A model generated the notes under the pieces. That model had not been told where the DNA came from and did no database searches. It saw only the letters and a list, made by a program, of their open reading frames with translations. This document shows positions 461 to 27,620 of a stretch of DNA of 36,072 bases, one piece after another. The stretch covers positions 1 through 36,072 of the forward strand of contig OMZY01000025.1 of assembly GCA_900315675.1 (NCBI GenBank), written 5' to 3'. Within the stretch, counting starts at the first letter, position 1. Each line of letters opens with the position of its first letter. Position numbers and translations under genes: made by a program. The DNA comes from an uncultured Eubacteriales bacterium (GTDB lineage: Bacteria; Bacillota; Clostridia; Christensenellales; Aristaeellaceae).

Positions 461-498
461 ATTAATTGTGAATTGTGAATTATGAATTCTGAATTATC
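461..498. repeat. AT-rich tandem array 1
   Basis: Tandem variants of AATTGTGAATTATGAATT between the TSCPD gene and the helicase. The array contains the proposed helicase start codon at 482. A small palindrome, ATCAGCTGAT, lies about 30 bases upstream. Confidence 0.85.
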
Positions 499-1651
499 TT
501 TTGAATCCATGGATCTCTCTTCCGAGATCCTCCGTGCCGTTCAGGCCATGGGGTTTCAGGAACCCTCCACCGTCCAGGCGAAAACCATTCCCCTGATGAT
601 GGAAGGTCATGATATCAACGCCATTGCCCCTACCGGTACCGGTAAAACCTGCGCCTTCGGCATTCCCATGCTGGAATATGTCCAGCTCAAGGACAGCCGT
701 GTGCAGGAAATCGTCCTGGCGCCCACCCGGGAACTGGCGCTGCAGATTGGCGAGGAGCTGACCAAGCTCGCCAAGTTCATTGACGGCGTACGGATCGCCG
801 TCATCTATGGCGGACAGTCCATTTCACGCCAGATCACCGCGCTCAAACGCCGGCCCCAGATCGTCATTGCGACGCCCGGGCGCCTTCTGGACCATATGCA
901 GCGGGGCAACATCCGCCTGGACGCGGTCCACACCATGGTGCTGGATGAAGCGGATGAAATGCTGAACATGGGTTTTGTCAAAGACGTGACAAAAATCATC
1001 GAAGCAACGCCTTCCGACCGTCAGCTGGTGCTTTTCTCCGCCACTACCAATCAGGACGTGCTGACCATCGCCTGGAAATACCAGCACGATCCGGTGGAGA
1101 TTACCGTTGAGGCCACCAAGGCGGACCGCCCGCAGATCACCCAGTACGTCATCGCGACCGAACAGGATCACAAAACGGATAATCTGCTCTATCTTCTGGA
1201 TGCCAATGTGTATCAGCGCGTCATGATCTTCTGCAATACCAAGTTCATGACCGATAAGCTGACCAGCCGCCTGATCAAGGAAGGCTACAACGCCCAGTGC
1301 CTCCACGGAGACATTCCCCAGTCCAAGCGGAACACCGTCATGAATGATTTCAAGCGGGGTAAGTTCCCGATCCTTGTTTCCACCGATGTTGCCGCCCGCG
1401 GCATTGACGTGGATGATGTGGAAGCCGTCATCAATTACGACCTGCCGAATGAGAACGAGTATTATCTCCACCGCATCGGCCGTACCGGCCGCGCCCATAA
1501 GCACGGCGTTAGCTTTTCCCTGGTTACCTTCCGGGAAAGCGTCCGGATGGATGAAATCCTGAAGTATATGCTCACCGCGCCGACGCCCCTGAAGTTTGAG
1601 GACGATGTTCTGCGCAGGGAAGACGGTACTCCCTTCTTCGAAAACATCTGA
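482..1651 (+). CDS. DEAD-box ATP-dependent RNA helicase (CshA/DeaD type), 389 aa
   Basis: Unwinds RNA duplexes with ATP; bacterial homologues act in ribosome assembly, mRNA decay and cold adaptation. Motifs in order: Q-motif region (GFQEPSTVQAKTIP, ~25-38), Walker A PTGTGKT (50-56), PTRELA (81-86), TPGR (131-134), DEAD (155-158), SAT (186-188), STDVAARGID, and HRIGRTGR near the C-terminus. It lacks the long basic tail of many DeaD proteins, so it is a minimal helicase core. The start at 482 lies inside an AT-rich repeat and has no visible Shine-Dalgarno sequence; ATG 509 is the alternative and would lose nine residues without touching a motif. A hairpin at 1695-1726 probably ends transcription. 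Confidence 0.95.
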   Translation: MNSELSFESMDLSSEILRAVQAMGFQEPSTVQAKTIPLMMEGHDINAIAPTGTGKTCAFGIPMLEYVQLKDSRVQEIVLAPTRELALQIGEELTKLAKFIDGVRIAVIYGGQSISRQITALKRRPQIVIATPGRLLDHMQRGNIRLDAVHTMVLDEADEMLNMGFVKDVTKIIEATPSDRQLVLFSATTNQDVLTIAWKYQHDPVEITVEATKADRPQITQYVIATEQDHKTDNLLYLLDANVYQRVMIFCNTKFMTDKLTSRLIKEGYNAQCLHGDIPQSKRNTVMNDFKRGKFPILVSTDVAARGIDVDDVEAVINYDLPNENEYYLHRIGRTGRAHKHGVSFSLVTFRESVRMDEILKYMLTAPTPLKFEDDVLRREDGTPFFENI

Positions 1652-1694
1652 CAGCTTACCGCTGTTGGATCTGCGTCTTTCCGAATTGATTGCA

Positions 1695-1726
1695 AAATGC
1701 CTTTTCAGAAAACTGAAAAGGCATTT
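1695..1726. terminator. Hairpin after the helicase gene
   Basis: A perfect 14-bp stem (1695-1708 with 1713-1726) with loop AAAA. The ends are A/T rich, but no long T run follows. AT-rich array 2 starts 18 bases later. Confidence 0.7.
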
Positions 1727-1743
1727 ACTGTATGGACATTCCG

Positions 1744-1778
1744 CAATTCTTCATTTTTCATTCTTCATTCTTCATTCA
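1744..1778. repeat. AT-rich tandem array 2 (TTCATTCTTCATT type)
   Basis: Five or six copies of TTCATT/TTCTTCATT lie between two hairpins, in the space between convergent genes. This subtype also occurs at 22283. Confidence 0.75.
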
Positions 1779-1780
1779 AA

Positions 1781-1813
1781 AAAGATCCCCGAGGCGATTC
1801 CTCGGGGATCTTT
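1781..1813. terminator. Terminator of the zinc-ribbon gene
   Basis: A perfect 14-bp stem (1781-1794 with 1800-1813) with a five-base loop. Read on the minus strand it is followed by a run of T, so it ends the zinc-ribbon transcript; it may also work on the plus strand. Confidence 0.88.
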
Positions 1814-1827
1814 CCTTGTGTCTGCGA

Positions 1828-2106
1828 TTATCCGCGGCGAGCGGCAAAGCACTCGCTGCAGTATACGGGACGGTCCTCTTTGGGCTCGAAGGGAACCTGA
1901 GTGGGCTTTCCGCATTCTGCGCAAACAGCGTCGTACATCTGACGCGGAGCGCCGGCAGCACGGCTTGCCTTACGGGCCTGACGGCAGGCCTTGCAGCGGG
2001 TGGGCTCGTTCTGGAATCCCTTTTCGGCATAGAATTCCTGTTCACCGGCAGTGAAAACGAACTCAGCGCCACAGTCTTTGCATACCAGCGTTTTGTCTTC
2101 GTACAT
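1828..2106 (-). CDS. Zinc-ribbon protein with paired CxxC motifs, 92 aa
   Basis: Small cytoplasmic protein of unknown function. Two zinc-ribbon modules are visible: CKDC (9-12) with CKAC (38-41), and CAEC (62-65) with CSEC (83-86). The layout fits the 'probable zinc-ribbon' / CxxC_CXXC_SSSS-type families. The sequence between the pairs is basic (RQARKASR), so RNA or DNA binding is possible but unproven. The ATG at 2106 is preceded by GGGGGTT. Upstream in-frame codons run through the proposed structured RNA and are unlikely to be translated. The promoter is at 2358-2386 and the terminator at 1781-1813, so the gene and its leader form one transcript unit. Confidence 0.82.
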   Translation of the reverse strand: MYEDKTLVCKDCGAEFVFTAGEQEFYAEKGFQNEPTRCKACRQARKASRAAGAPRQMYDAVCAECGKPTQVPFEPKEDRPVYCSECFAARRG

Positions 2107-2127
2107 GATCTGGTAACCCCCATAAAG

Positions 2128-2352
2128 ATTTGATAGGCGACTCCTTCGGCTGACCTGGTCTTTGACCCCACACACGCCGTCTGGAAGTCTGCTCTGTGCT
2201 TTACGCACCCTCACTCGCTTCTCTCGGGATTGCTCCCGGACGGACTTACATCTAGACCGCACCATGCTCCCCGCCGCTTTGGACGGATTACGTGGACCGC
2301 TTTGCCTGCGACTGGCATCGGCTTGCAACCACAGACCCGAAGGACCCAACCG
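2128..2352 (-). ncRNA. Candidate structured RNA (leader or standalone; possibly raiA-motif-like)
   Basis: About 220 GC-rich bases lie between a strong promoter and the zinc-ribbon gene, with no plausible protein. Readable helices on the minus strand include CGGGA-GCAA-TCCCG (a GNRA-type tetraloop), GTGC-GTAAA-GCAC, GGTC-AAA-GACC, TGCC-(7)-GGCA, and an AAGTC/GACTT pair enclosing the first two, as in a multibranch junction. CGCCG near the 5' end can pair with CGGCG in the 3' half. It does not match what I know of tmRNA, RNase P RNA, SRP RNA or 6S RNA. Its size, clostridial setting and first ~60 bases recall the raiA motif, but I cannot verify this from memory. No intrinsic terminator separates it from the gene. 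Confidence 0.55.
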
Positions 2353-2357
2353 GCGAC

Positions 2358-2386
2358 ATTATATTACCACCATGTACAAAACGCAA
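2358..2386 (-). promoter_or_regulatory. Sigma-70 promoter of the structured RNA / zinc-ribbon unit
   Basis: On the minus strand: -35 TTGCGT (2386-2381), 17-base spacer, -10 TATAAT (2363-2358) preceded by TGGTAA. Transcription would start near 2351, exactly where the structured segment begins. Confidence 0.8.
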
Positions 2387-2454
2387 GATTTTTTTCCATT
2401 TTTGACAAATAAAGACAATCGAAATGCATTCTTTGAGAAGGATTCCCTCATTTT

Positions 2455-3159: not shown

Positions 3160-3177
3160 AATCGTTCCTCCTAAGAT

Positions 3178-3210
3178 TAATTCATAATTCACAATTCATA
3201 ATTCATAATG
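3178..3210. repeat. AT-rich tandem array 3
   Basis: TTCATAATTCACAATTC-type units start 18 bases upstream of the araD start codon. They are followed by GATATACACTGTA, similar to the ACACTATAT box beside other arrays. Confidence 0.88.
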
Positions 3211-3256
3211 ATATACACTGTAGCAATCCAGTTGAAGTATAAAAAGTAAGGACTAT

Positions 3257-3300
3257 TACCTCCTACTTCCTACCTCCTACTTCCTATCTCCTGCCTCGTA
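3257..3300. repeat. TACCTCCTACTTCC short tandem repeat
   Basis: About three degenerate copies of a 14-base pyrimidine-rich unit lie between arrays 3 and 4. On the minus strand it reads GGAGGTAGGAAGTAGG and so contains Shine-Dalgarno-like strings with no gene behind them. Confidence 0.8.
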
Positions 3301-3301
3301 C

Positions 3302-3338
3302 ATTAATTCTGAATTCTGAATTCTTAATTCTTAATTTT
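3302..3338. repeat. AT-rich tandem array 4, overlapping the tdk 3' end
   Basis: AATTCTGAATTCTTAATT-type units. On the minus strand the array encodes the last tdk codons (KIKN) and the TAA stop at 3324-3326. Confidence 0.88.
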
Positions 3339-3893
3339 CAATGTTCCTAGGTCCCCGTTGCGCCAGTGCTTCCTGCACAGGGACACATAGCTTTCATCCC
3401 CGCCCAGTACAATCTGCTCGCCTTCCCGGGCCACTTTGCCGTCAATCACACGGGCGTTGCATGTGGCTTTCTTGCCGCACCAGCAAATGGTCTTCACTTC
3501 TTCAATCGTATCAGCCCAGGCCATCAGCCACTGGCTTCCCTCAAAGAAATTGCCCTTGAAGTCTGCCCGCAGGCCGTAGGCAATGACCGGAATTCCCATA
3601 TCGTCCACAATATGCACCAGGTATTCCACCTGGGCCTTTGTGAGGAACTGGGCTTCATCCACAATCACGCAGTCATAGCCTGTCAGGTCCATTTGCTCCA
3701 GTTCTTCCGCAAACACGCACTCTGTTTCCAGACCGCTGCGGGAGCGGATGATCCGGGCACCGTCACGGTTCTCCAGCTGCGGCTTGACCATCAGCACTTT
3801 CTGGTTCCGTTCTCCGTAGTTATACTGGACCATAATCGCGTTCGCCGTTTTGCTTGACCCCATGGCGCCATAGCGAAAATACAGTTTAGCCAA
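3324..3893 (-). CDS. tdk: Thymidine kinase (type II), 189 aa
   Basis: Phosphorylates thymidine with ATP in pyrimidine salvage. P-loop GAMGSSKT (9-16), Walker B VIVDEAQFLT (77-85; E80 is the likely catalytic base), GLRADFKGNFFEGS lasso region, and a zinc site from CWC (137-139), C145 and C173. The start is taken as TTG 3893, giving [15 protein letters not shown], because GGAGG lies nine bases upstream and the usual family N-terminus follows. Upstream codons only reread the end of clpC. It overlaps clpC by eight bases, which suggests translational coupling. The last residues LKIKN and the stop come from AT-rich array 4, so the gene end has been rebuilt by the repeat. Confidence 0.93.
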   Translation of the reverse strand: MAKLYFRYGAMGSSKTANAIMVQYNYGERNQKVLMVKPQLENRDGARIIRSRSGLETECVFAEELEQMDLTGYDCVIVDEAQFLTKAQVEYLVHIVDDMGIPVIAYGLRADFKGNFFEGSQWLMAWADTIEEVKTICWCGKKATCNARVIDGKVAREGEQIVLGGDESYVSLCRKHWRNGDLGTLKIKN

Positions 3894-6639: not shown

Positions 6640-6666
6640 TTCTCTCGCCTCTTTTCTTCTCCACAC

Positions 6667-7462: not shown

Positions 7463-7491
7463 AATATACCCTCCCCTCGTCAAAGCGCATC

Positions 7492-7508: not shown

Positions 7509-7513
7509 TATTG

Positions 7514-7542: not shown

Positions 7543-7575
7543 CAACTGCTTTTAAACCAAACAGTCTGTTAAGGT

Positions 7576-7605
7576 AAACACTATATGATTGTTCATTGTT
7601 CATTG
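7576..7605. repeat. AT-rich array 5 with ACACTATAT box, overlapping a gene end
   Basis: AAACACTATATGATTG followed by TTCATTGTTCATTG. On the minus strand it encodes the last residues (NEQ) and TGA stop of the serine hydrolase. Nearly the same sequence, including the ACACTATAT box, occurs at 24090. Confidence 0.85.
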
Positions 7606-11757: not shown

Positions 11758-11803
11758 TAATTCAGAATGCAGAATTATGAATGCAGAAATATATAGTGTT
11801 TCT
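11758..11803. repeat. AT-rich array 6 with ACACTATAT box (reverse)
   Basis: ATTCAGAATGCAGAATTATG-type units, then ATATATAGTGTTT, the reverse complement of the AAACACTATAT box seen at 7576 and 24090. It sits upstream of the histidine kinase. Confidence 0.85.
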
Positions 11804-11880
11804 TCTTCCGCATTTCCACACTTACATCAACCTGATAAATCCTGGTCGTTTCAACTCTGGCAGATAAGCTGTAAACCATT

Positions 11881-11913
11881 TCATTCTGCATTCTGCATTC
11901 TTAATTCTGCATT
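11881..11913. repeat. AT-rich array 7
   Basis: TTCTGCATTCTGCATTC-type units in the opposite sense to array 6, directly abutting the palindrome at the end of the response regulator gene. The ~77 bases between arrays 6 and 7 have no gene. Confidence 0.85.
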
Positions 11914-11951
11914 GGTATAAATTTTCTACCGATCGGTAGAAAATTTATACC
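11914..11951. repeat. 38-bp perfect palindrome across the response regulator stop codon
   Basis: Two perfect 19-base arms centred between 11932 and 11933 (GATC centre). One arm is the last coding sequence of the regulator; the TAG stop (11926-11928) lies in the other arm. No T run follows on the minus strand, where array 7 begins at once. Confidence 0.95.
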
Positions 11952-12640: not shown

Positions 12641-12681
12641 TTAATTCACAATTCACAATTCACAATTCATAATTCATAATG
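12641..12681. repeat. AT-rich array 8
   Basis: TTAATTCACAATTCACAATT-type units immediately upstream of the response regulator. It faces array 9 in opposite sense across ~90 bases that contain TCTTTCATCTGATAAAGC, a motif partly shared with 18711-18730. Confidence 0.88.
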
Positions 12682-12770
12682 ATGATTACTGTCTTTCATC
12701 TGATAAAGCATATCAACAGGCACCGGTTTCATAATTCATATGTTCTGTCTTATGTGATTCACAAACTCTG

Positions 12771-12803
12771 ATTATGAATTGTGAATTATGAATTATGAAT
12801 TTC
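12771..12803. repeat. AT-rich array 9
   Basis: ATTATGAATTGTGAATTATG-type units abutting the long hairpin at the end of mutS2. Confidence 0.88.
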
Positions 12804-12805
12804 TG

Positions 12806-12847
12806 CACGGTAGTGACGCTGAAGGTTACTTCAGCGTCACTACCGTG
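12806..12847. repeat. Long inverted repeat with the mutS2 stop codon in its loop
   Basis: Perfect 19-bp arms (12806-12824 and 12829-12847) with a four-base loop. The coding arm is the end of mutS2 (TVVTLK); the loop holds the stop codon (12826-12828). It may act as a terminator, although no T run follows on the minus strand. Confidence 0.95.
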
Positions 12848-15183
12848 ACTCCGTCTTCTCCTTCGCCGTACATACCCCGGCGGAAGCTCTTCACGTGCTT
12901 GTTTTTCCTCAGGTCCTGCTGGATTCCGGCCCGAAGGATACCGGTTCCCTTCCCGTGAATGACGTAAACCTCGTTCAGTCCGGCCAGCACGGCTTCGTCC
13001 AGGTACAGGCTCACCGCGTCCAGTGCTTCCTCCAGGTTCATGCCCCGCACGTCGCATTCGCTCTTCACCGTCCGGGTCATCATGCCGGTTTTTGCCTTCA
13101 CCGTTGTCTTTTCCTTCGCTGGAGCCTGGCGGATCAGCCGGAGCTGGGAAAGTTCCGCCGTAAACTTCATCATGCCGGCCTGCAGGCGCACCTCGCCTTT
13201 TTCATCCGGCGGCGCCAGGACCGTTCCTTCCACGCCGAGCGTCAGGATCTTCACCTGGTCTCCGGCCTTTACAGTCTTCGGTGCTTCCCCGCCGTCCGGT
13301 TCACCCCGTCCCAGGCCTTCCGCCAGCGCGTCGCTTTCCTTGTCCAGCCGCCGGCGCAGGTCATTCACGGACGCGTCGCCCGACGCGGCGTTCTTCTTCA
13401 TTTTCTTCAGCTCTGCAATCACGCTCTCGCTTTCACGCCTGGCCTGGTCCACGATGTGTTTCGCGTCCTCACGGGCTTTGCGCAGCGCCTGCTCCCGCTT
13501 CTGCTCCATCTCTTTGCGCAGCTGTTCCGCTTCATTGCGCAGACGGATGGTTTCCCGGTTCGCTTCCTCCGCCAGCTGACGTTCTTTCTCCGCTACCTGC
13601 CGGTGGTATTCCGCATTGGCGATCACGTCCTCAAACCGGATTGCGTTTCCGCTCAGCAGCTTCCGGGCGGCGTCAATCAGGTTCTCCGGCAGGCCCAGCC
13701 GCCGGCTGATCTCAAAGGCATTGCTCTTTCCGGGAACGCCGATGGACAGGCGGTAGGTCGGCCGCAGGGTTTCCACGTCAAATTCAACCGAGGCGTTTTC
13801 CACCCCTTGCGTGGTCAGCGCAAATGCCTTCAGTTCGCTGTAGTGGGTGGTAGCCAGCGTCCGCACCTTAATGTGCAGCAGCCGCGTCAGGATACTCTGG
13901 GCCAGCGCGGCACCCTCGGTAGGATCCGTACCGGCACCCAGCTCGTCAAACAGCACCAGGTCCCTGGGCGTCACCTCGTGCATGATCTCCACAATGTTGG
14001 TCATGTGGCCGGAGAATGTGGACAGGCTCTGCTCAATGCTCTGCTCATCGCCGATATCCGCAAAAACCTGCTCAAACACCGCCAGTTCCGTTCCCGGATC
14101 CGCCGGTACCTGCAGACCTGCCTGCGCCATCAGGGTAAACAGACCCACTGTCTTCAGCGTGACGGTCTTACCGCCGGTATTCGGACCGGTAATGATCAGA
14201 GAGGTAAACTCCTCCCCCAGCCAGATCGTGGAAGGCACCACTTTCTCCGGATCAATCAGCGGATGCCGTCCGCGGATGATCTTCAGCCGGCCTTCATTGT
14301 TCATCTTCGGGCTCACGCAGAAAAACCGGCGGCTCAGCAGGCCCTTGGCAAAGATGAAATCCAGCTCCGCCAGCTGCTCCTGCGTCTCCGCAATGGCGGC
14401 GGCATAGGGCGCCACTTCCGCGGACAGCGCTGCCAGAATCCGGGCAATCTCCTGCTGTTCTTTCAGTTCCCACTGTTTCAGTTCATTGCCCATTTCCACA
14501 GCGGCCATGGGCTCAATAAACAGCGTTGCGCCGGAGGAACTCTGGTCATGCACCAGGCCCTGTACCATGGAGCGGTATTCCGCCTTGACCGGCAGCACAT
14601 ACCGGTTGTTTCTCACCGTAATGATCGGATCCTGCAGCGCCTTCTGCAGCGTGGCGGAGTGAATCATCTGGTTCAGCTTGTCCCGGATCCGGTCCTGTGC
14701 GCCTCGCAGATGCCGCCGGATATTCATCAGTTCGCTGCTTGCCCGGTCGGCAATTTCATCCTCGGAAATAATGGCGTCCGTAATGTCCTTTTCTATGCTT
14801 CTGGAAACAAAAAGCCCTTCCGCTTTCACACGCAGGAGAGGGGTGTTCTCCCGCTCCGTCACCAGCGCGTCCTGGGCGGCGCGGCTTGCCCGCAGCAGCT
14901 CTGCCACATTCAGCAGCATGCCGGCGCTCAGGCTTCCGCCTTTCTCGCAGATCACCAGTGCAGGCTTCACATCCGGGAACGCGATCATCGGATGGCCTCC
15001 CGCGTACTGCAGGATCACCGTTGCTTCTTCTGTTTCCGCCTGCAGGGCCTGCACGGCGGTCAGTTCGTCCGCCGGCTCCAGCTGCCGGCATTTTTCCGCT
15101 CCGGCCGGCGTCAGGGCGCCTTCCGCCAGGAGCTCGCGGATCCTGGTAAATTCCAGCACCCGCAATGTTCGTTCCTTCATCAT
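12826..15183 (-). CDS. mutS2: MutS2 (Smr-domain ATPase), 785 aa
   Basis: MutS-family ATPase linked to recombination control and, in Bacillus, to rescue of collided ribosomes. Core/clamp region, then ATPase with Walker A TGPNTGGKTVTLKT, Walker B LVLFDELGAGTDPTEGAALA and ATTHYSELK; a long charged coiled coil (EKERQLAEEANRETIRLRNEAEQLRKEM...); a KOW-like stretch (VKAGDQVKILTLGVEGTV); and the C-terminal Smr nuclease domain (CDVRGMNLEEALDAV, VIHGKGTGILR). Length is normal. Start ATG 15183 (or the next ATG, 15180) has AAGGAA upstream. It sits between the U32 gene and the two-component pair, the usual Bacillota order after zapA-U32. The last six codons form one arm of a hairpin. Confidence 0.95.
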   Translation of the reverse strand: MMKERTLRVLEFTRIRELLAEGALTPAGAEKCRQLEPADELTAVQALQAETEEATVILQYAGGHPMIAFPDVKPALVICEKGGSLSAGMLLNVAELLRASRAAQDALVTERENTPLLRVKAEGLFVSRSIEKDITDAIISEDEIADRASSELMNIRRHLRGAQDRIRDKLNQMIHSATLQKALQDPIITVRNNRYVLPVKAEYRSMVQGLVHDQSSSGATLFIEPMAAVEMGNELKQWELKEQQEIARILAALSAEVAPYAAAIAETQEQLAELDFIFAKGLLSRRFFCVSPKMNNEGRLKIIRGRHPLIDPEKVVPSTIWLGEEFTSLIITGPNTGGKTVTLKTVGLFTLMAQAGLQVPADPGTELAVFEQVFADIGDEQSIEQSLSTFSGHMTNIVEIMHEVTPRDLVLFDELGAGTDPTEGAALAQSILTRLLHIKVRTLATTHYSELKAFALTTQGVENASVEFDVETLRPTYRLSIGVPGKSNAFEISRRLGLPENLIDAARKLLSGNAIRFEDVIANAEYHRQVAEKERQLAEEANRETIRLRNEAEQLRKEMEQKREQALRKAREDAKHIVDQARRESESVIAELKKMKKNAASGDASVNDLRRRLDKESDALAEGLGRGEPDGGEAPKTVKAGDQVKILTLGVEGTVLAPPDEKGEVRLQAGMMKFTAELSQLRLIRQAPAKEKTTVKAKTGMMTRTVKSECDVRGMNLEEALDAVSLYLDEAVLAGLNEVYVIHGKGTGILRAGIQQDLRKNKHVKSFRRGMYGEGEDGVTVVTLK

Positions 15184-15230: not shown

Positions 15231-17570
15231 TTATTCCACAGCCCGTTTCCAGTGCCCGGAAGTTGTTTCTCCGTCCGTCTTCCGGCCTTCCTTAAAAGCC
15301 TCCAAAACCATTCTTGTTTCTTCCGCATCCTCCGTAGTCAGAACAACGGCCTTTAATTGTGCATTATGCATTGTACATTGTGCATTGTATATGTTGTCCG
15401 TCGGCAGTGCATTCATCAGCTGCACCAGACAGCCTTCCGGCAGCCGCTGCCGCAGCAGCGGAAAACGGTATCCCTTCCGGTCCTCCAGTACCTGCCCCCG
15501 GAGTGCGTCAGGATGCCCCTCATCGCACATCCTGCACCCGGCATGCCCTTTCTTCAGGCCCAATGCGGTCCTGGCCGGGCAGTGGTGAAGCAGCATCAGC
15601 CGCGTCCGCCCGTAAACTGCCGTCACAATCGGCACGCCGCCGGCCAGGAGCGTTTTCAGTTCCTGCCCGGTCAGTTCAGGAGACGCCGTCACAAACACGC
15701 ATCCTTCCTCCAGAAGCAGCGAAGCCGCCTGCCGGTTCATCACCGGAATACCGGGACCTGCCGCAAAAGCAACCGGCCAGTCCGCGCCCAGCTGACCCAC
15801 GGAGCCCAGCACAATGCCGCCCAGCAGATCTTTGTTCTCTTCTGCATAGCGGCGCAGCGTCTGCAGGGTTTCTTCCTCGCATACGTCCGGCAGTGCCAGC
15901 CAGTCTCCCGGCTGCATGGCGGTTTTCAGCTCCTGCAGGGCCTCCGTCCGGTAATCCTCCGGGCACCAGATGACCCGCAATCCGGCTTTCCGCGCCGCAT
16001 CCGCCTGCTCCTTTTTCCGAACATAAGCAAGATTCGGCACTTCCATACTGGGGAGGTATTCTGGCACAGCCATTAATTCTGAATTCTGAATTCTGAATTC
16101 TGAACTAACTTGCTCAAACGCGTCAATACGCGCTTGAGCAAGTTGTTCCAGCGCTTCCCGTCGGATGGCATTCACCTGGCTCACCGGTACAAACGCGCCG
16201 GCTGTCTTGGCCCTGATTTCCCTGGGCACAAACACGGTTTCTCCGGTTTTGCCGAGATTCCGTGCCAGTTCTTCTTCCGTTACTGCCCGGGTTTTGGCAG
16301 CCTCCACTGTTTCTCCGGTGACTGTTACGGTACTTTCACCATCCGTGGCCGTCAGCCGCAGCGCCTCGCCCGGCATTGCCTTCAGGAAAAGATCCGCCGG
16401 CACTGTCCGGCCCTTCATCTTTTCGGCTTCCTCCAGCTGTTCCGCAGAGGTCAGGCGGTATGCAGTATCTCCCGTCTTTGCCGTTGTTCCCGGCCGAAGT
16501 CGCAGAATGGCCGTCTCCCCTGCTTTCAGATCCGGTCCGGCATAAACCAGCCCGGTTTCCTCATGTGCGCCCCGCAGCGTCAGGCCGTCTCCGTTCCGCA
16601 GATCCTTTTCCAGCTGAACTTTCGCCAGTTTTCCGTCCGCCGCGGTCACCCGGCCCATCCGGACGCCCTGGTGATTCACTGTATCGGGATAGATCACGCC
16701 CGCGTCTTCGCAGCCCAGGGCATAGCCCTTCATGAAGCCGCCCCGGTTAAAAATCTGGAGCAGATCTTCCTTTTCCGCTTCATCCGCTTTTTCAAACCTG
16801 CCCTGTTCCAGGCTGTCCAGTCCTTTCCGGTAGCTGGCTGCCACAGTGGCCACGTATTCCGGCCGTTTCAGCCTTCCCTCAATCTTGCAGGATGCAACAC
16901 CCGCTTCCTGTAGCTTCAGCAGTTCGTCCCGCAGGCACACGTCCCGGGGACTCAGCCATGCGCCCCGACGGCCGCGGTAATCATATTCCATCCGACAGGG
17001 CTGGGCGCATCGGCCCCGGTTCCCGCTCCGTTCTCCCACCATGCTGGAAAACAGGCAAAGTCCGCTCACTGCCACGCACTGCGCGCCATGGACAAACACT
17101 TCAATCTCAACGCCCGTATCCGCACACTTCCGGATTTCCTCCAGGGAGCATTCCCGTGCCAGCACAGCCCTGCTGATTCCCTGCCTGCCGCACCAGATTA
17201 CCCCGGTCCGGTTGTGTATGGCCATCTGGGTGCTTGCGTGTACCGTCAGTCCCGGGAAAAGCCGCCGGGCGATCCGCAGCACGCCCAGGTCCTGGATCAG
17301 CACCGCGTCTGCCTTCAGGTCATTCAACAGCCGCAGCACCTCTGTCACCCGGCCCAGTTCTCCGTCCTTCACCAGCGTGTTCACCGTCACATGAACCCGC
17401 ATATGGCGCAGATGGGCAAAACGGATAGCGTCCTCCAGCTCCTGCCGGTCAAAGTTTCCCGCACCGGCACGCGCACTGAAAGCGGCATACCCAAGGTATA
17501 CCGCGTCCGCACCTGCCGCATCCGCCCGTTCCAGGGCCGCGCGGTTTCCCGCAGGAGCCAGGTTCTCCAT
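15231..17570 (-). CDS. U32 family protein with DUF3656 (RlhA-like), 779 aa
   Basis: Peptidase-U32-like enzyme; E. coli RlhA, the closest studied relative, hydroxylates 23S rRNA C2501, and I infer an RNA-modification role rather than proteolysis. The N-terminal TIM-barrel region starts MENLAPAGN. The U32 signature follows: VEIEVFVHGAQCVAVSGLCLFSS with four cysteines in GAQC, GLC, GRC and QPC, likely Fe-S ligands. A DUF3656-type middle and a C-terminal barrel-like part (from MAVPEYLPS) come next. Two AT-rich arrays are read in frame: residues around SSEFRIQNSEL (16073-16104), directly after a 16-bp hairpin, and IYNAQCTMHNAQL near the C-terminus (15357-15391). Start ATG 17570 with GGGGGG. It lies between zapA and mutS2. 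Confidence 0.9.
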   Translation of the reverse strand: MENLAPAGNRAALERADAAGADAVYLGYAAFSARAGAGNFDRQELEDAIRFAHLRHMRVHVTVNTLVKDGELGRVTEVLRLLNDLKADAVLIQDLGVLRIARRLFPGLTVHASTQMAIHNRTGVIWCGRQGISRAVLARECSLEEIRKCADTGVEIEVFVHGAQCVAVSGLCLFSSMVGERSGNRGRCAQPCRMEYDYRGRRGAWLSPRDVCLRDELLKLQEAGVASCKIEGRLKRPEYVATVAASYRKGLDSLEQGRFEKADEAEKEDLLQIFNRGGFMKGYALGCEDAGVIYPDTVNHQGVRMGRVTAADGKLAKVQLEKDLRNGDGLTLRGAHEETGLVYAGPDLKAGETAILRLRPGTTAKTGDTAYRLTSAEQLEEAEKMKGRTVPADLFLKAMPGEALRLTATDGESTVTVTGETVEAAKTRAVTEEELARNLGKTGETVFVPREIRAKTAGAFVPVSQVNAIRREALEQLAQARIDAFEQVSSEFRIQNSELMAVPEYLPSMEVPNLAYVRKKEQADAARKAGLRVIWCPEDYRTEALQELKTAMQPGDWLALPDVCEEETLQTLRRYAEENKDLLGGIVLGSVGQLGADWPVAFAAGPGIPVMNRQAASLLLEEGCVFVTASPELTGQELKTLLAGGVPIVTAVYGRTRLMLLHHCPARTALGLKKGHAGCRMCDEGHPDALRGQVLEDRKGYRFPLLRQRLPEGCLVQLMNALPTDNIYNAQCTMHNAQLKAVVLTTEDAEETRMVLEAFKEGRKTDGETTSGHWKRAVE
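15357..15391. repeat. AT-rich array 10, coding, inside the U32 gene
   Basis: TTGTGCATTATGCATTGTAC-type units translated on the minus strand as YNAQCTMHNAQL. The frame stays open. I see no hairpin beside this copy. Confidence 0.8.
16073..16105. repeat. AT-rich array 11, coding, inside the U32 gene
   Basis: AATTCTGAATTCTGAATTC-type units translated on the minus strand as SEFRIQNSEL, followed by a methionine codon. It abuts the hairpin at 16107-16144. Confidence 0.9.
16107..16144. repeat. 16-bp inverted repeat inside the U32 gene
   Basis: Arms 16107-16122 and 16129-16144 with one G.U-compatible mismatch and a six-base loop, fully coding (QLAQARIDAFEQV) and directly beside AT-rich array 11. This is the same arrangement as at the gene ends. 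Confidence 0.9.
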
Positions 17571-17586: not shown

Positions 17587-17626
17587 GAATTAATTCATAA
17601 TTAAGAATTCATAATTCATAATTATA
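17587..17626. repeat. AT-rich array 12
   Basis: AATTCATAATTAAGAATTC-type units upstream of the U32 start, followed by ATTATATATGG. It faces array 13 in opposite sense across ~75 gene-free bases. Confidence 0.88.
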
Positions 17627-17700
17627 TATGGTTATTCCGGATCTTTCATATCTTCACAAATCTATTAACAGCACCATTGCTGATAGTGTCAGTATCCAAT

Positions 17701-17733
17701 CATTGTGAATTATGAATTATGAATTCTGAATTG
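17701..17733. repeat. AT-rich array 13, overlapping the zapA 3' end
   Basis: TTGTGAATTATGAATTATG-type units. On the minus strand it encodes the last zapA residues (IQNS) and the TAA stop. Confidence 0.9.
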
Positions 17734-18734: not shown

Positions 18735-18767
18735 CATTCTGAATTCTGAATTCTTAATTCTGAATTT
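18735..18767. repeat. AT-rich array 14
   Basis: TTCTGAATTCTGAATTC-type units in the space upstream of the cyclophilin gene. Confidence 0.88.
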
Positions 18768-18886: not shown

Positions 18887-18967
18887 TCACCTCCTTCCCT
18901 TGGGCGGATATTTCACACAGGGACGCACAGCGGCGCTGTATTGCACATCGCGAAGGCTATATTTCAT
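18887..18967 (-). CDS. Possible 26-residue basic peptide
   Basis: ATG 18967 to TGA 18887, reading MKYSLRDVQYSAAVRPCVKY and ending PPKGRR. The upstream site CAGGGC is weak. The stop is formed by the perfect ribosome-binding string AAGGAGGTGA, as if coupled to a following reading frame. No family recognised. It may be a leader peptide or chance. Confidence 0.25.
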   Translation of the reverse strand: MKYSLRDVQYSAAVRPCVKYPPKGRR

Positions 18968-18995
18968 ATTTGCCCTGCAGGCAGATATATCATTC

Positions 18996-19029
18996 AAAAA
19001 AGGCGCGGAGCACACTCTGCGCCTTTTTT
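18996..19029. terminator. Bidirectional terminator upstream of the GNAT gene
   Basis: 15-bp arms (18996-19010 and 19015-19029, one wobble) with loop CACA, flanked by A6 and T6, so it can work on both strands. Its T run overlaps the -35 box of the next promoter. Confidence 0.9.
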
Positions 19030-19056
19030 GACAACCTCCTTCCATCTTTGTATAAT
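19028..19056 (+). promoter_or_regulatory. Consensus sigma-70 promoter of the GNAT gene
   Basis: Perfect TTGACA (19028-19033), 17-base spacer, perfect TATAAT (19051-19056), 28 bases before the start codon. The first two bases of the -35 box belong to the preceding terminator T run. Confidence 0.92.
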
Positions 19057-22215: not shown

Positions 22216-22227
22216 TTGTTCATAAAG

Positions 22228-22257
22228 TGGAGGGACTGCGCTTGCGCAGTCCCTCCA
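22228..22257 (+). terminator. Terminator after secF
   Basis: TGGAGGGACTGCG stem (22228-22240 with 22245-22257), four-base loop CTTG, 13 perfect pairs. Little T follows; an AT-rich array starts 26 bases on. Confidence 0.78.
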
Positions 22258-22282
22258 TTCATTTCCCTGGAATACTGAAAGC

Positions 22283-22313
22283 TTATCATTTTTCATTCTT
22301 CATTTTTCATTGT
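22283..22313. repeat. AT-rich array 15 (TTCATTCTTCATT type)
   Basis: Same subtype as array 2 at 1744, again placed just after a hairpin at a gene end and before the next gene (recJ). Confidence 0.75.
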
Positions 22314-22331
22314 TTACGAAAGGAGGCCGCC

Positions 22332-23999: not shown

Positions 24000-24159
24000 T
24001 AATATGTTGTGAAACTGTCCTTTCGTTATTCCTGAACTGACAGTATTCATCAGCATCAATGATCCTGCATTCATTTTCCGGAATATTGTAACACTATATA
24101 ATTGTTCATTATTCATTGTTAATTGTTAATTATTTGGACTCCCGAAGGGAGGTGTAATC
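24000..24159 (+). promoter_or_regulatory. rel leader region with a hairpin over the ribosome-binding site
   Basis: 160 bases between recJ and rel. The ribosome site GGGAGG pairs with CTCCC just upstream (24139-24143 with 24047-24051 numbering relative to the leader corresponds to 24147-24151; loop GAA), which could mask it. Array 16 lies immediately upstream. No clear promoter is visible; TATAAT occurs at the recJ stop (23995-24000) without a good -35. Confidence 0.4.
24090..24133. repeat. AT-rich array 16 with ACACTATAT box
   Basis: AACACTATATAATTGTTC followed by ATTATTCATTGTTAATTG units. The first 30 bases nearly match array 5 at 7576. Confidence 0.88.
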
Positions 24160-26367
24160 GTGGCTTTCACATCTTATGAGGCAATGCCTCTGGATCAGAT
24201 GCTCAACCGGGTACAGAAGTACCATCCCGGCGACGGCTATAAACTCGTGGAAAAAGCCTGGAAGTTTGCCGAAAAGGCCCATGAAGGTCAGTTCCGCAAA
24301 TCCGGTGAGCCTTATTTCACCCATCCCAGTCTGGTTGCTTCGATCCTTACGGATCTGATGATTGATCCCCCTACCATTGCGGCAGGTCTCCTGCATGACA
24401 CAGTGGAGGACTGCGAAGGCATTACGCTGGATACCATCCGCGAACAGTTCGGCAATGAGGTCGCCGACCTGGTGGACGGCGTCACCAAACTGAACAAGCT
24501 CGATTTTGCCGACAGGGAGGAAGCCCAGGCTGAATCCCTCCGCAAGATGATCCTGGCTATGTCCCGGGATATCCGCGTCGTGCTCATCAAGCTGGCGGAC
24601 CGCCTGCACAACATGCGTACCCTGCGTTTCCAGTCTGAGGCCCGCCGTCAGGCGATTGCCCGTGAAACCCTGGATATCTATGCGCCCCTGGCGCACAGAC
24701 TGGGTGTTTATGCCATCAAGCAGGAGCTGGAGGATCTTTCCCTCAAGTACCTGGATCCGGAAGGCTACAACCGCATTGTCCATCTTGTGGGCATGAAGCG
24801 CCAGGAACGGGAGGAAAGCATCCGCCTGGTGATTGATGAGCTTTCAGAGCGGCTGGATCAGCAGCATATCCGCTACAATATCGACGGCCGCAGCAAGCAC
24901 TTTTATTCCATCTACCGCAAGATGGTCATCCAGCAGAAGGCCTTTGACCAGATCTACGACCTGATTGCCATCCGGGTTATCGTGGATACCATCCCGGACT
25001 GCTATACCGTGCTGGGCATTGTCCATACCCTGTGGAACCAGGTCCCCGGCCGGTTCAAGGACTATATCTCCGTCCCCAAGGCCAACATGTACCAGTCCCT
25101 GCACACCACCGTCGTCGGCGGCCGGAAGATTCCCTTCCCCTTCGAGGTGCAGATCCGCACCTGGGACATGCACCGCGTGGCGGAATTCGGTATCGCAGCC
25201 CACTGGCGCTATAAGGAAGGAGCCTCCCAGCAGGACAACCTGGACCATAAGCTTTACTGGGTCCGCCAGATGCTGGACTGGCAGACGGAAACCCGGGATT
25301 CCCGGGAATTCCTGGACACCCTGAAAACAGATCTTTTCTCCGAGGAAGTGTTCCTTTTCACTCCCAAGGGAGACGTCATTTCCATGCCCAAGGGAGCCAC
25401 TCCCCTGGACTTTGCCTACCGGATCCACTCCGCCGTCGGCAACCAGTGTGTCGGTGCGAAAATCAACGGCAAGATCGTTCCGCTGGATACGCCCCTGGGC
25501 ACCGGCGACCGGGTGGAAATCCTGACCTCCGCCTCTTCCAAGGGGCCGGGTACCGACTGGCTCCGGATCTGTAAAACTCCCCAGGCCAAGGCAAAAATCC
25601 GCCAGTTCCTGAAGAAATCCCTGAAGGAAGAGAACGTCGAACTCGGTCGCGGCATGATTGAAAAAGAATGTACGCGCCGCGGCGTCCGCATGTCCGACAT
25701 TGTCAAGCCGGAGTATTATGAACCGATCCTGAAGCGTACCGGTTTCACGGACTTCGATGATATCTGCAGCGCCGTCGGCTACGGCGGCATGGCGGCTGTC
25801 TATGTGGTCACCCGTCTCATCGAGGAATCGAAGGCCAAGGAGCAGACTGCCGTCCAGAACGTCCAGACCGTGGACGATATGGTCTCGGAGGAAAAGCGCC
25901 TCAGTCAGCACCGCGCGCATCACGGCATCGTGCTCACCGGCAGCGAGGATCTGGATATCCCGGTTCGCTTCGCAAAGTGCTGCAGTCCTGTTCCCGGTGA
26001 TGAGATCGTGGGTTATATCACCCGCGGCCGCGGCGTCACCATCCACAAGGCGGAATGCGTCAACGTTGCCTCCGGTGAGGAGGAGCGCCGTATCCCTGTG
26101 GAATGGGCAAGCGACGGACAGAACACCTTCTATGCCACCATTACCATCATTGCCTATGACCGGCTGAATATGCTCAGCGAGATTGCCACCATCATCGGTG
26201 AAAACGGCGTGTCCATCCGGGCTGCCTCCATCCAGAGCGATGAAAAGACCCGGATCTCCACCCTGCATCTGACCCTTGAGGTACGTTCCCGCGAGGAAAT
26301 GAACAAGGTCATCCAGGCTCTCCGCAACAAGTCTGATATATTGGATGTATACCGTGCCACAAAGTGA
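24160..26367 (+). CDS. rel: Bifunctional (p)ppGpp synthetase/hydrolase (Rel), 735 aa
   Basis: Makes and degrades the stringent-response alarmone. N-terminal HD hydrolase with H55 (THPSLVA) and H79-D80 (LLHDTVEDC); synthetase domain with GRSKHFYSIYRKM and RFKDYISVPKANMYQSLHTTVVG; TGS domain (EVFLFTPKGDVISMPKGATPLDFAYRIH); a conserved-cysteine region (VRFAKCCSPVPGDEIVGYITRGRGVTIHKAEC); and a C-terminal ACT domain. An intact HD motif and the RFKD synthetase motif support a bifunctional enzyme. The start is GTG 24160 with GGGAGGTG upstream. The last codons LDVYRATK are part of a long inverted repeat. It leads the rel-dtd-MBL-hemZ cluster. Confidence 0.95.
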   Translation: MAFTSYEAMPLDQMLNRVQKYHPGDGYKLVEKAWKFAEKAHEGQFRKSGEPYFTHPSLVASILTDLMIDPPTIAAGLLHDTVEDCEGITLDTIREQFGNEVADLVDGVTKLNKLDFADREEAQAESLRKMILAMSRDIRVVLIKLADRLHNMRTLRFQSEARRQAIARETLDIYAPLAHRLGVYAIKQELEDLSLKYLDPEGYNRIVHLVGMKRQEREESIRLVIDELSERLDQQHIRYNIDGRSKHFYSIYRKMVIQQKAFDQIYDLIAIRVIVDTIPDCYTVLGIVHTLWNQVPGRFKDYISVPKANMYQSLHTTVVGGRKIPFPFEVQIRTWDMHRVAEFGIAAHWRYKEGASQQDNLDHKLYWVRQMLDWQTETRDSREFLDTLKTDLFSEEVFLFTPKGDVISMPKGATPLDFAYRIHSAVGNQCVGAKINGKIVPLDTPLGTGDRVEILTSASSKGPGTDWLRICKTPQAKAKIRQFLKKSLKEENVELGRGMIEKECTRRGVRMSDIVKPEYYEPILKRTGFTDFDDICSAVGYGGMAAVYVVTRLIEESKAKEQTAVQNVQTVDDMVSEEKRLSQHRAHHGIVLTGSEDLDIPVRFAKCCSPVPGDEIVGYITRGRGVTIHKAECVNVASGEEERRIPVEWASDGQNTFYATITIIAYDRLNMLSEIATIIGENGVSIRAASIQSDEKTRISTLHLTLEVRSREEMNKVIQALRNKSDILDVYRATK

Positions 26368-26385
26368 CACGGTATACATCCAATA
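26339..26385. repeat. Long inverted repeat across the rel stop codon
   Basis: Perfect 18-bp arms (26339-26356 and 26368-26385); an inner CAC/GTG pair is also possible. The TGA stop (26365-26367) lies in the loop. No T run follows; a TTCACTTTTCACTCTTCAC stretch does. Confidence 0.95.
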
Positions 26386-26479
26386 ACTCTTCACTTTTCA
26401 CTCTTCACTCATAACTGGTCTCTCTTCACTTTCATCTCCTGTTTCAGCACTCATTATTCTGTCCCTGCAGCTACCCTAT
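26386..26479. other. rel-dtd spacer
   Basis: Pyrimidine-rich, with repeated TTCACT units (CTCTTCACTTTTCACTC, then CTCTTCACTTTCATC), possibly a diverged AT-rich array. I see no promoter or gene in it. Confidence 0.5.
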
Positions 26480-26514
26480 TTAATTCTGAATTCTGAATTC
26501 ATAATTCTGAATTA
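26480..26514. repeat. AT-rich array 17
   Basis: TTAATTCTGAATTCTGAATTC-like units (each under 20 bases) just before the dtd ribosome site. Confidence 0.88.
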
Positions 26515-26531
26515 GCCTGAAAGGATTCTTT

Positions 26532-26981
26532 ATGCGAGCAGTTGTCCAGCGCGTTACCAGCGCTTCCGTAACCGTTGAAGGTGAAACCGTCGGCGCCGTC
26601 GGTCCAGGCCTCATGGTCCTGATCGGCGTCTCCAGGGAAGACACCGACAAGGACCTGAAATACATCGTGGACAAGGTGCAGAACCTCCGCGTTTTCGATG
26701 ATGAAAACGGGGTTATGAACCGTTCCATTCTGGACGCGGGTGGCAGCATTCTGGCCGTCTCCCAGTTCACCCTTTACGGCGATGCCCGCGGCGGCCGCCG
26801 GCCCTCCTATTTCCGGGCTGCCGGTCCGGAAATGGCCAATGAGCTGTACGAGCGGGCTGTGGCTGCCTGGCGGGATCAGGGAATCCATGTGGAAACCGGC
26901 CGCTTCAGGACCGAGATGAAGGTCTCGCTCATCAACGACGGACCGGTTACCATCCTTCTGGACAGTGAAAAGGCTTTTTAA
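26532..26981 (+). CDS. dtd: D-aminoacyl-tRNA deacylase, 149 aa
   Basis: Hydrolyses D-aminoacyl-tRNA (and Gly-tRNA-Ala) so that D-amino acids do not enter protein. N-terminus MRAVVQRVTSASV is the family signature; the SQFTLYGD motif (77-84) and LINDGPVTI near the C-terminus form the chirality-proofreading pocket (the usual Gly-cisPro is Gly-Pro here). Full length. AAAGGA lies six bases before ATG 26532. It comes after rel and before the MBL hydrolase, the usual clostridial order. Confidence 0.95.
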   Translation: MRAVVQRVTSASVTVEGETVGAVGPGLMVLIGVSREDTDKDLKYIVDKVQNLRVFDDENGVMNRSILDAGGSILAVSQFTLYGDARGGRRPSYFRAAGPEMANELYERAVAAWRDQGIHVETGRFRTEMKVSLINDGPVTILLDSEKAF

Positions 26982-27001
26982 CCCACAGAGGAGTAACAGC
27001 C

Positions 27002-27577
27002 ATGATCATCGATGAACTCACAGTCGGTATGGTGCAGACCCGCTGCTATATCCTGAGCCCGGAGGGCGGACAGGAATGCATTGTCATTGATCCGGGTGAT
27101 GAGGCTTCGCGGATCCTGAAAGCCGCCGGAAACCGGAAAATCGCGGCCATCCTGCTGACCCACGGCCACTTTGACCACATCGGCGCGGTGGACGCGCTGT
27201 ACCGTCATTCATCCGCGGCTGACCGTCCCAGGATTGTAATCCATGAACTGGACGCACCGATGCTGACCAATCCCGTTCTGAATGCCGGTATGGGCCTGAT
27301 GGGGTGCGAAATCACCGCGCCGCAGGCAACCGACCTGGTCCGGGAAGGCGATGAACTGACTCTGGCCGGACTGAAAATTCAGGTACTGCACACTCCCGGT
27401 CACACTCCCGGAAGCGTATGCTATCTGATTGAAGGAGAACTGTTCACCGGGGATACGCTGTTTGATTACGGCTGGGGCCGCACAGACCTTCCCGGCGGAA
27501 ATGAAGAGCAGATGGAAGACTCCCTGAGACGGCTCATGCCCATGGTCCGGTCCATTCCCATGCATGCCGGTCACTGA
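27002..27577 (+). CDS. Metallo-beta-lactamase-fold hydrolase (glyoxalase II-like), 191 aa
   Basis: Binuclear metal hydrolase. Metal motif HGHFDHIG (H54, H56, D58, H59), second ligand in HTPGHTPGSVCY, DTLFDYGWGRTDLPGG and a terminal histidine in PMHAGH. It resembles YcbL/GloB-like thioester hydrolases; the substrate is not known. AGAGGAG lies eight bases before ATG 27002, 20 bases after dtd. The C-terminus stops just after the last ligand, slightly shorter than typical members (~205-210). A diverged partial copy of its first ~45 residues lies on the other strand at 29099-29245. Confidence 0.9.
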   Translation: MIIDELTVGMVQTRCYILSPEGGQECIVIDPGDEASRILKAAGNRKIAAILLTHGHFDHIGAVDALYRHSSAADRPRIVIHELDAPMLTNPVLNAGMGLMGCEITAPQATDLVREGDELTLAGLKIQVLHTPGHTPGSVCYLIEGELFTGDTLFDYGWGRTDLPGGNEEQMEDSLRRLMPMVRSIPMHAGH

Positions 27578-27588
27578 ACCAATCCGAA

Positions 27589-27620
27589 TGATGAATTACG
27601 CTTATGAATTGTGAATTGAA
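27589..27620. repeat. AT-rich array 18 at the hemZ start
   Basis: GATGAATTACGCTTATGAATT-like units (shortened here); the hemZ start codon ATG 27604 and the residues MNCELN lie in it. Confidence 0.75.

What the first reader, a model, noticed from the sequence alone, without database searches (positions are those of the whole stretch)
461..27620. A dispersed AT-rich tandem repeat family (18 arrays) throughout a housekeeping region
Arrays of ~30-45 bases built from AATTCATAATT, GAATTGTGAATT, AATTCTGAATT or TTCATTGTTCATT occur at 461, 1744, 3178, 3302, 7576, 11758, 11881, 12641, 12771, 15357, 16073, 17587, 17701, 18735, 22283, 24090, 26480 and 27589. They are absent from the 7-kb exported-protein region and from inside operons with tight gene junctions. 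The 11- to 14-base period and variant choice differ between arrays, yet the consensus is shared. I do not recognise the family as a named element.
Basis: seen in the sequence. Interest (0 to 1): 0.72.

Follow-up and report, generated by a model that had tools for sequence, protein, structure and literature searches.

The report
Four-unit seven-base repeats at gene borders
Short blocks, typically 32 bases made of four and a half copies of an AT-rich seven-base word, are scattered at gene edges in this gut Clostridia genome and mostly point at the gene, resembling G-rich repeats described in Xanthomonas and so questioning the explanation given there.

Summary
The arrays are real, but the period is 7, not 11-14: units MATTNTK (AATTCTG, AATTATG, CATTCTT and others). 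TRF finds one at 17 of the 18 stated places. The typical array is 4 units plus MATT = 32 bp. The seed pattern matches 966 times in the genome, its reversed control 20 times. Arrays lie at gene borders, mostly with the 3' end of the pyrimidine-rich strand facing the gene, start or end; close neighbours form inverted pairs. At the two clearest junctions array-free relatives have 15-59 bp, array-bearing ones 143-208 bp. Counts climb along one clade (63 to 1049; 0-39 elsewhere in the genus). Another genus keeps length and polarity with other units. Published analogues: Xanthomonas/Nostoc GGGNATC, Geobacter four/five-unit heptamers (one MTYCTGA = AATTCTG rotated), Beggiatoaceae TAACTGA. These arrays lack G-tracts, so if they are one class the G-quadruplex explanation of the four-unit preference is not general. 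They do not look like transposon copies: two of two interiors searched genome-wide are single-copy. A covarying two-hairpin element without Rfam match sits inside arrays in 16 (strict) to 21 (loose) of 26 copies. How arrays arise is unresolved; DNA-level addition at gene borders is my preferred reading.

The parts
464..495 (+). heptamer array (RTG/CTG units); the DEAD-helicase ORF start (482) lies inside it
1745..1776 (+). heptamer array CATTYTT type, next to a terminator-like hairpin
3179..3210 (-). heptamer array facing the SD/start of the class II aldolase gene; left half of an inverted pair
3257..3301 (.). second heptamer family, TACYTCC
3305..3336 (+). heptamer array facing the end of the thymidine kinase gene; right half of the pair
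7588..7605 (+). short array (2.6 units) abutting a hairpin at the end of the PF00144-family gene; the stop codon of the ORF lies in it
11759..11792 (-). array facing the histidine-kinase start
11882..11913 (+). array facing the response-regulator end; inverted partner of 11759-11792
11914..11951 (.). palindrome (17-bp stem) abutting the array at 0 nt; one arm is the response-regulator CDS tail
12643..12681 (-). array facing the response-regulator start
12771..12801 (+). array facing the MutS2 end; inverted partner of 12643-12681
12805..12848 (.). palindrome (20-bp stem, 1 mismatch) containing the MutS2 CDS tail, stop codon in the loop
15355..15386 (+). array inside the U32 peptidase CDS (site 1)
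16075..16102 (+). array inside the U32 peptidase CDS (site 2); some relatives carry the two-hairpin element inside it
17592..17623 (-). array facing the U32 peptidase start
17701..17732 (+). array facing the end of the upstream gene; inverted partner of 17592-17623
18735..18766 (+). heptamer array
22287..22314 (+). CATTYTT array just before the recJ SD (AGGAGG)
24100..24134 (+). MATTRTT array before the relA/spoT SD
26386..26434 (+). third heptamer family, ACTCTTC/ACTTTTC
26482..26513 (+). AATTCTG array before the dtd SD

Best explanation
A lineage-amplified class of heptamer arrays, typically 32 bp (4 units plus 4 bases), added at the DNA level to gene borders. Shown: the length peak, the polarity toward the gene at both starts and ends, inverted pairs, extra DNA between paired arrays at junctions that are tight in array-poor relatives, whole-unit copy changes, and unit-type differences at unchanged length. 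Inferred: (1) arrays arise by reiterative synthesis or insertion at junctions, so that seen from the gene the 3'-ending strand always gains the same purine-rich heptamer (CAGAATT here; GGGAATC in Xanthomonas by the published description); (2) arrays then homogenise by exchange between dispersed copies, with breakpoints inside arrays; (3) the result separates adjacent genes and gives tight operon junctions spacers, sometimes with palindromes built on the CDS tail. Which enzyme does step 1 is unknown.
For: Length: 35 of 60 strict arrays are exactly 32 bp and 39 of 60 have 4 units, reversed control 1 array; TRF arrays of 31-33 bp: 39/68, 37/53, 30/45, 27/56 in G000, G175, G150, G060. Polarity: gene-facing side nearer in 47/58, 45/52, 36/43, 44/50 (each p<1e-5, treating arrays as independent, which orthologues in G175 and G150 are not). 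Pairs within 300 bp outward-facing '-+': 10/15, 11/11, 10/11, 20/20; no '+-' in these four. Junctions: median 169 bp in 51 species-junctions scored with an array, 62 bp in 53 scored without; HK|RR 28-59 bp in seven array-free relatives and 171-203 bp in five rows with arrays; RR|MutS2 15-55 bp in six array-free relatives and 143-208 bp in six with arrays. Turnover: G175 and G150 are 94.05% identical over 147,656 aligned bases, yet interiors between shared flanks look unrelated at several junctions, once with the breakpoint inside the array (by eye). U32 site 1: a 32-bp array in 6 of 13 rows and two more, G066 and G179, by eye, with differing units. Rise along the MutS2 tree (counts). Palindromes starting within 6 nt of end-facing arrays: 31/84, 21 of them at 0 nt, against 0/46 at start-facing arrays and 2/84 shuffled; far arm overlaps the called CDS in 23 of 31.
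Against: No enzyme identified: RVT_1 has no hit in eight of the nine clade genomes (four hits in G168); Y1_Tnp does not track array counts. No clean empty/filled site with only a 32-bp array as the difference was found; the insertion inference rests on whole-junction comparisons, and two rows scored array-free are long for other reasons (G165 RR|MutS2 217 bp; G168 HK|RR 269 bp, which holds degenerate arrays and the two-hairpin element). The back side of end-facing arrays also has such stems in 14 of 84 and far-from-gene arrays in 9 of 41, so palindromes are not exclusive to the gene side. Border position could come from selection alone. Copy number changes by whole units between G175 and G150, as slippage predicts. 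G337 gave one '+-' pair and 3 of 5 by distance.
Confidence: 0.35

Rival explanations
1. Selected binding sites: each array is a polar site for a nucleoid or regulator protein, and inverted pairs are bridged or bent, as proposed for the Geobacter paired sites.
For: Length peak at 32 bp (about three helical turns), unit degeneracy with a constant core, inverted pairs, gene-border position, arrays at the same junctions across several species; the Geobacter authors proposed IHF/HU-type binding for similar paired sites.
Against: Arrays also sit inside the U32 coding sequence at two sites; unit sequences differ between genera and between orthologous arrays; no binding protein known.
Confidence: 0.25
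2. Heptanucleotide microsatellites made by replication slippage (the polymerase-footprint idea of Mrazek as cited in the MacGregor introduction and the Rehm discussion).
For: Period 7 dominates tandem arrays: 55, plus 13 of period 14, among 122 TRF rows of period up to 30 in the own sample; whole-unit gains and losses between G175 and G150.
Against: Peak at 32 bp instead of a decaying distribution; polarity toward genes; a core shared over many loci; extra DNA between paired arrays.
Confidence: 0.15
3. RNA-level insulator: inverted arrays form a long duplex in the intergenic transcript (RNase III or terminator-like), separating cistrons.
For: All four inverted-pair junctions of the window fold better than 200 dinucleotide shuffles each: z -4.51, -5.91, -3.27, -3.26, no shuffle as good. 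This is expected of any inverted repeat pair. End-facing palindromes. Odds raised from 0.12 to 0.15 after the full junctions were folded.
Against: Many arrays have no close partner: 17 adjacent pairs within 300 bp among 74 relaxed arrays. Start-side and end-side arrays are different RNA sequences, so one RNA mechanism does not explain the common DNA polarity. In many palindromes listed no U-tract stands between hairpin and array (by eye).
Confidence: 0.15
4. MITE-like transposon whose terminal inverted repeats are the arrays.
For: Inverted pairs with unique interiors replacing tight junctions; [quoted passage not shown] L122:2516 with L122:295 (80 bp, 96%) and L122:14485 with L105:474 (98 bp, 87%).
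Against: Two of two interiors searched genome-wide are single-copy in G000 and match only next to the same genes in nine relatives (ten further interiors were not searched); no target duplication seen; Y1_Tnp uncorrelated; intragenic arrays have no partner.
Confidence: 0.1

Closest known systems
GGGNATC heptamer repeats of Xanthomonas and GGGGA(C/T)T of Nostoc (Rehm et al. 2015, PMC4692102; abstract and sections 10, 11, 13, 14, 16 read)
   Same: [quoted passage not shown] inverted pairs in Xanthomonas (70 cases in Xcc, 75 in Xac). GATTCCC shares the ATTC core and orientation with MATTNTK (my comparison).
   Different: The clostridial units of G000, G175 and G150 lack G-tracts (GGG/CCC in 1/68, 1/53, 0/45 arrays). 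Their lengths run from 2 to 26 units there, with few pairs in Nostoc; here the length is tighter. Junctions with repeats were reported as unusually stable in Xanthomonas; here their content turns over.
Geobacter metallireducens Gmet_H4 elements (four heptamers, 49 copies) and class 3 sites (five heptamers MTYCTGA) (PMC2700814; passages only)
   Same: Four or five tandem heptamers; class 3 sites described in pairs; MTYCTGA is AATTCTG rotated.
   Different: 16 class 3 sequences there; 60 strict arrays in 11% of the genome here. Orientation to genes not given in the passages seen; interpreted there as regulator binding sites.
TAACTGA direct repeats of Beggiatoaceae (MacGregor 2015, PMC4679880; abstract and introduction read)
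   Same: Heptamer arrays, intergenic, just upstream of start codons.
   Different: One fixed unit, two to six copies; a single indirect repeat reported.
STRR heptamers of cyanobacteria (search listing only; otherwise recalled)
   Same: Intergenic heptamer tandem repeats.
   Different: Not compared here.
Rickettsia palindromic elements (recalled, from no call)
   Same: In-frame insertions of repeat DNA inside protein genes, as at the U32 sites.
   Different: RPEs are longer palindromes with a conserved sequence; the arrays are not.

Membership tests
Four-unit heptamer gene-border repeats (Xanthomonas/Nostoc type) | tandem unit of 7 with a mode of four units | tested here: met
Four-unit heptamer gene-border repeats (Xanthomonas/Nostoc type) | strand and distance rule relative to ORF starts and stops | tested here: met
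   with own simple ORF calls
Four-unit heptamer gene-border repeats (Xanthomonas/Nostoc type) | G-tracts able to form a quadruplex | tested here: not met
   GGG/CCC in 2 of 166 arrays of G000, G175, G150; 26 of 56 in G060 hold one
Four-unit heptamer gene-border repeats (Xanthomonas/Nostoc type) | common descent with the Xanthomonas repeats | not testable with these tools
   32-bp degenerate repeats carry little signal; no Xanthomonas genome was examined
MITE | multi-copy conserved interior | tested here: not met
   two of two interiors searched genome-wide are single-copy; a few other back-sides match elsewhere
MITE | terminal inverted repeats | tested here: met
   inverted '-+' pairs
MITE | target site duplication | tested here: inconclusive
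   no clean single-insert empty site found
Slippage microsatellite | decaying copy-number distribution | tested here: not met
   peak at 32 bp
Slippage microsatellite | whole-unit length changes between close relatives | tested here: met
Geobacter class 3 MTYCTGA sites | paired tandem heptamers of MTYCTGA | tested here: inconclusive
   AATTCTG arrays in inverted pairs exist here, but with four and a half units instead of five, and compared only with the published consensus

The most novel reading that the evidence does not exclude
Bacteria of several phyla share a telomere-like DNA-end activity: at broken or stalled junctions between genes, a polymerase extends the 3'-ending strand outward from the gene with about 4.5 purine-rich heptamers (CAGAATT, AGGAATT, GGGAATC by lineage), sometimes after fold-back copying of the gene tail, before the two ends are rejoined through new DNA. 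Arrays would be healed-end scars, which explains why polarity depends on the gene side and not on transcription direction.
Probability: 0.1. Interest if true: 0.93.

Novelty: new variant of a known kind. Interest (0 to 1): 0.66.

Why it matters
Four-unit heptamer repeats at gene borders were linked in Xanthomonas and Nostoc to G-quadruplex formation, which needs four G-tracts. The same unit length, copy number and strand rule in AT-rich arrays without G-tracts suggests that this link is not the general cause, and points to a common DNA-level cause that can be tested in a clade where array counts rise from 63 to 1049 matches. It also shows intergenic DNA that is replaced between genomes whose aligned DNA is still 94% identical.

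Tried and rejected
Period 11-14: rejected, TRF gives 7. Shuffled-background explanation: rejected. G-quadruplex: rejected for G000, G175, G150; 26 of 56 arrays in G060 hold GGG/CCC, so it is not excluded there. Promoter -10 element directly before arrays: TANNNT within 14 nt in 10 of 29 start-facing and 10 of 49 end-facing arrays; not convincing. RT-templated addition by an RVT_1 enzyme: no hit in eight of nine clade genomes, four hits in G168. Y1 transposase as array maker: 0 hits in array-bearing G165, G168 and G181, 8 in G091. Canonical terminators: many abutting palindromes lack a U-tract before the array (by eye, not counted). Interiors moving as cassettes: two of the interiors were searched genome-wide, both single-copy; of the twelve prepared ten were not searched. 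Other class Clostridia families show pattern excess, but the samples of G366 and G337 held 5 arrays each. Gene calls are my own codon-usage ORF picks, not a gene finder; at least one is wrong (a plus-strand ORF over the thymidine kinase gene). Rows dropped: one search judged 69 of 74 arrays (the rest lay at stretch ends) and searches likewise dropped arrays without a called neighbour. In one search the array test is a loose core; the window's own short CtsR|bla array is scored 'without'. The gap lengths run between fixed anchors and include a few coding bases; 26 of 30 two-hairpin loci kept, 4 dropped (L235, L236, L239, L240), of which L240 looks like a true copy in an array and L235 a shortened one; L252 among the kept looks spurious. 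One search aligned 20 of the 26. The first folds cut off most of the right array of the 3178/3305 pair; refolded full junctions.
Full report
Observation. The window holds tandem arrays with period 7. TRF places one at 17 of the 18 stated positions; the ATT-core pattern matches 46 times, with none in 100 shuffles. In the own genome (3.62 Mb) the pattern matches 486+480 times against 11+9 for its reversed control. In 410,969 own bases (the window plus 20 stretches, 11% of the genome) a strict unit finder gives 60 arrays of MATTNTK, one in the reversed control; 39 have four units and 35 are exactly 32 bp, i.e. four units plus MATT. TRF agrees: 31-33 bp in 39 of 68 period-7/14 arrays.

Position and polarity. 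With simple ORF calls, 4 of 69 judged relaxed arrays lie inside a called gene. The 3' end of the MATTNTK strand faces the nearer gene in 47 of 58 cases in G000, 45 of 52 in G175, 36 of 43 in G150 (p at most 4.5e-6, arrays treated as independent). It faces gene ends (30) and starts (28) about equally in G000, so polarity follows the gene side and not the direction of transcription. Arrays facing ends lie within -26 to 40 bp of the stop in 31 of 36 cases, those facing starts within -14 to 32 bp in 17 of 29. Close pairs are mostly outward-facing inverted pairs: 10 of 15, 11 of 11, 10 of 11 in the three genomes. Against this: G000 has 3 '++' and 2 '--' pairs, and the one pair in G337 is '+-'.

Evolution. 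Relatives found with MutS2 are syntenic with the window over the stretches compared. At HK|RR seven array-free relatives have 28-59 bp, and five rows with arrays (window, G175, G150, G132, G066) have 171-203 bp; G168 fails the array test but holds degenerate arrays and the two-hairpin element in 269 bp. At RR|MutS2 six array-free relatives have 15-55 bp, six rows with arrays 143-208 bp, and G165 has 217 bp of other DNA. Over ten junctions 51 rows with arrays have a median of 169 bp and 53 without have 62 bp. Exceptions exist: the cyclophilin junction is long without arrays in several species. On a MutS2 tree of 26 of the 45 genus genomes the nine-species clade around the window (support 100/99) has pattern counts 63, 166, 269, 383, 720, 627, 966, 971 and 1049, its sister pair 39 and 25, and the other rows 0-3 (counts; fragmentary genomes undercount). 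In the whole genus the other genomes have 0-39; one of them, G155, has 33 with a control of 32. G175 and G150 are 94.05% identical over 147,656 aligned bases, yet at several junctions the DNA between shared flanks looks unrelated; at one the gene-proximal units are shared and the distal units and interior differ (by eye). U32 site 1 holds a 32-bp array in 6 of 13 rows by strict search and in two more by eye, with unit types that differ in concert (GTG/ATG against CTG) at unchanged length. This suggests exchange between arrays (inference); in a coding sequence the reading frame also keeps the length.

Palindromes. End-facing arrays in G000, G175 and G150 often abut a palindrome: 31 of 84 have a stem of at least 9 bp starting within 6 nt, 21 of them at 0 nt; start-facing arrays 0 of 46; shuffled end-facing sequence 2 of 84. 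In 23 of 31 the far arm overlaps the called CDS. Against exclusivity, the back side of end-facing arrays has such stems in 14 of 84, and arrays far from a called gene in 9 of 41. At MutS2, the window and G066 palindromes differ in sequence but each matches its own CDS tail, and G132/G168 have another centre; G175, G150, G165, G181, G179 and G112 have none. Templated correction of quasi-palindromes (recalled) plus selection could give the same picture, so this is not proof of fold-back insertion.

Two-hairpin element. An element of about 81-100 bp (..MATT|GTTGAG ... GCGATC|RCNG MATT..) turned up in the sample at hand in 9 copies, all 9 with array periodicity on the left and 8 on the right. Genome-wide, 14 of 45 genomes match its pattern; the nine clade genomes hold 3-20 matches each. 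Of 30 loci fetched, 26 passed a filter; 16 of these lie in arrays by a strict test (shuffled flanks mean 0.16, maximum 2) and 21 by a loose one (shuffled mean 2.5, maximum 8). Twenty aligned copies give 31 pairs, 16 with changes on both sides; 98.7% of cells pair against 85.5% shuffled and 31-45% when slid, and the covariation score is 0.444 against 0.182 shuffled; the count of further pair types does not exceed shuffles (455 of 500 reach it). No Rfam match to the element at E<=1 in five loci scanned. At one G175/G150 site and at U32 site 2 the same array is found with and without it, in register. I read it as a structured mobile element that targets arrays (inference).

Wider distribution. 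In the family sample 80 of 150 genomes have any pattern match, but high counts are patchy (G060 1078+1075). G060, of another genus, has units AATTCCT, CATTCTC and TACTCCC, with 27 of 56 arrays at 31-33 bp, 44 of 50 facing the nearer gene and 20 of 20 close pairs outward. In 291 class genomes several families show excess over control, but the follow-up samples of two of them held 5 arrays each.

RNA folding. All four inverted-pair junctions of the window, folded as RNA, are more stable than their 200 shuffles: z -3.26 (3178-3342), -4.51 (11759-11913), -5.91 (12643-12801), -3.27 (17591-17732). An earlier fold that cut one array short gave z -1.17. I raised the RNA rival from 0.12 to 0.15 and lowered the best explanation from 0.38 to 0.35 for this and for the back-side palindromes.

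Comparison with print. Rehm et al. 2015 (PMC4692102; abstract and five sections read) describe GGGNATC repeats with a preference for four units, the same strand rule at ORF starts and stops, and inverted pairs in Xanthomonas, and link four units to G-quadruplexes. The Geobacter metallireducens genome paper (PMC2700814; passages) lists four-heptamer elements and paired sites of five heptamers MTYCTGA. MacGregor 2015 (PMC4679880; abstract and introduction) describes TAACTGA. I saw no report for this lineage in the listings of searches. The clostridial arrays fit the architecture but not the quadruplex.

Mechanism. Two interiors are not transposon copies; RVT_1 is absent from eight of nine clade genomes and Y1_Tnp does not track arrays. 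The common polarity relative to the gene side points to a DNA-level process; the length peak at 32 bp points to a preformed or enzyme-limited addition or to a binding constraint. I put DNA-level addition first, binding sites second.

Noticed in passing
L237-L263, e.g. L259:1492-1599; G150 near L157:7280-7372: Two-hairpin structured element of about 87 bp with strong covariation (16 of 31 pairs), no Rfam match, mostly inside heptamer arrays, 3-20 pattern matches in the nine clade genomes.
   Followed up: partly
window 2141-2345, minus strand: raiA RNA (RF03072, 171.9 bits).
   Followed up: no
L157:17325-17415; homologous stretch near window 18930-19030: Gut-1 RNA-like match (46.6 bits, below the gathering score of 50): hairpins each followed by ATTTCA, after the cyclophilin gene. 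The window itself gave no match at the gathering score.
   Followed up: no
G150 intergenic MutS2|U32 and G165 RR|MutS2: Another repeated-looking intergenic element of about 180-200 bp (..CTTAACGAT..ACGAG..) at several junctions of relatives, seen by eye.
   Followed up: no
window 15231-17570: The U32 peptidase gene carries two array-encoded peptide stretches (NAQCTMHNAQL; SSEFRIQNSEL) in an open frame; several relatives lack them.
   Followed up: partly
window 464-495 and 27589-27620: ORF starts of the DEAD helicase (482) and hemZ (27604) lie in array or array-like sequence without a clear Shine-Dalgarno site (by eye).
   Followed up: no
window 29873-30288: Tandem repeat of 6/12/18/42 bp, probably coding, over the minus-strand ORF 29374-31098; strand and frame not resolved.
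   Followed up: no
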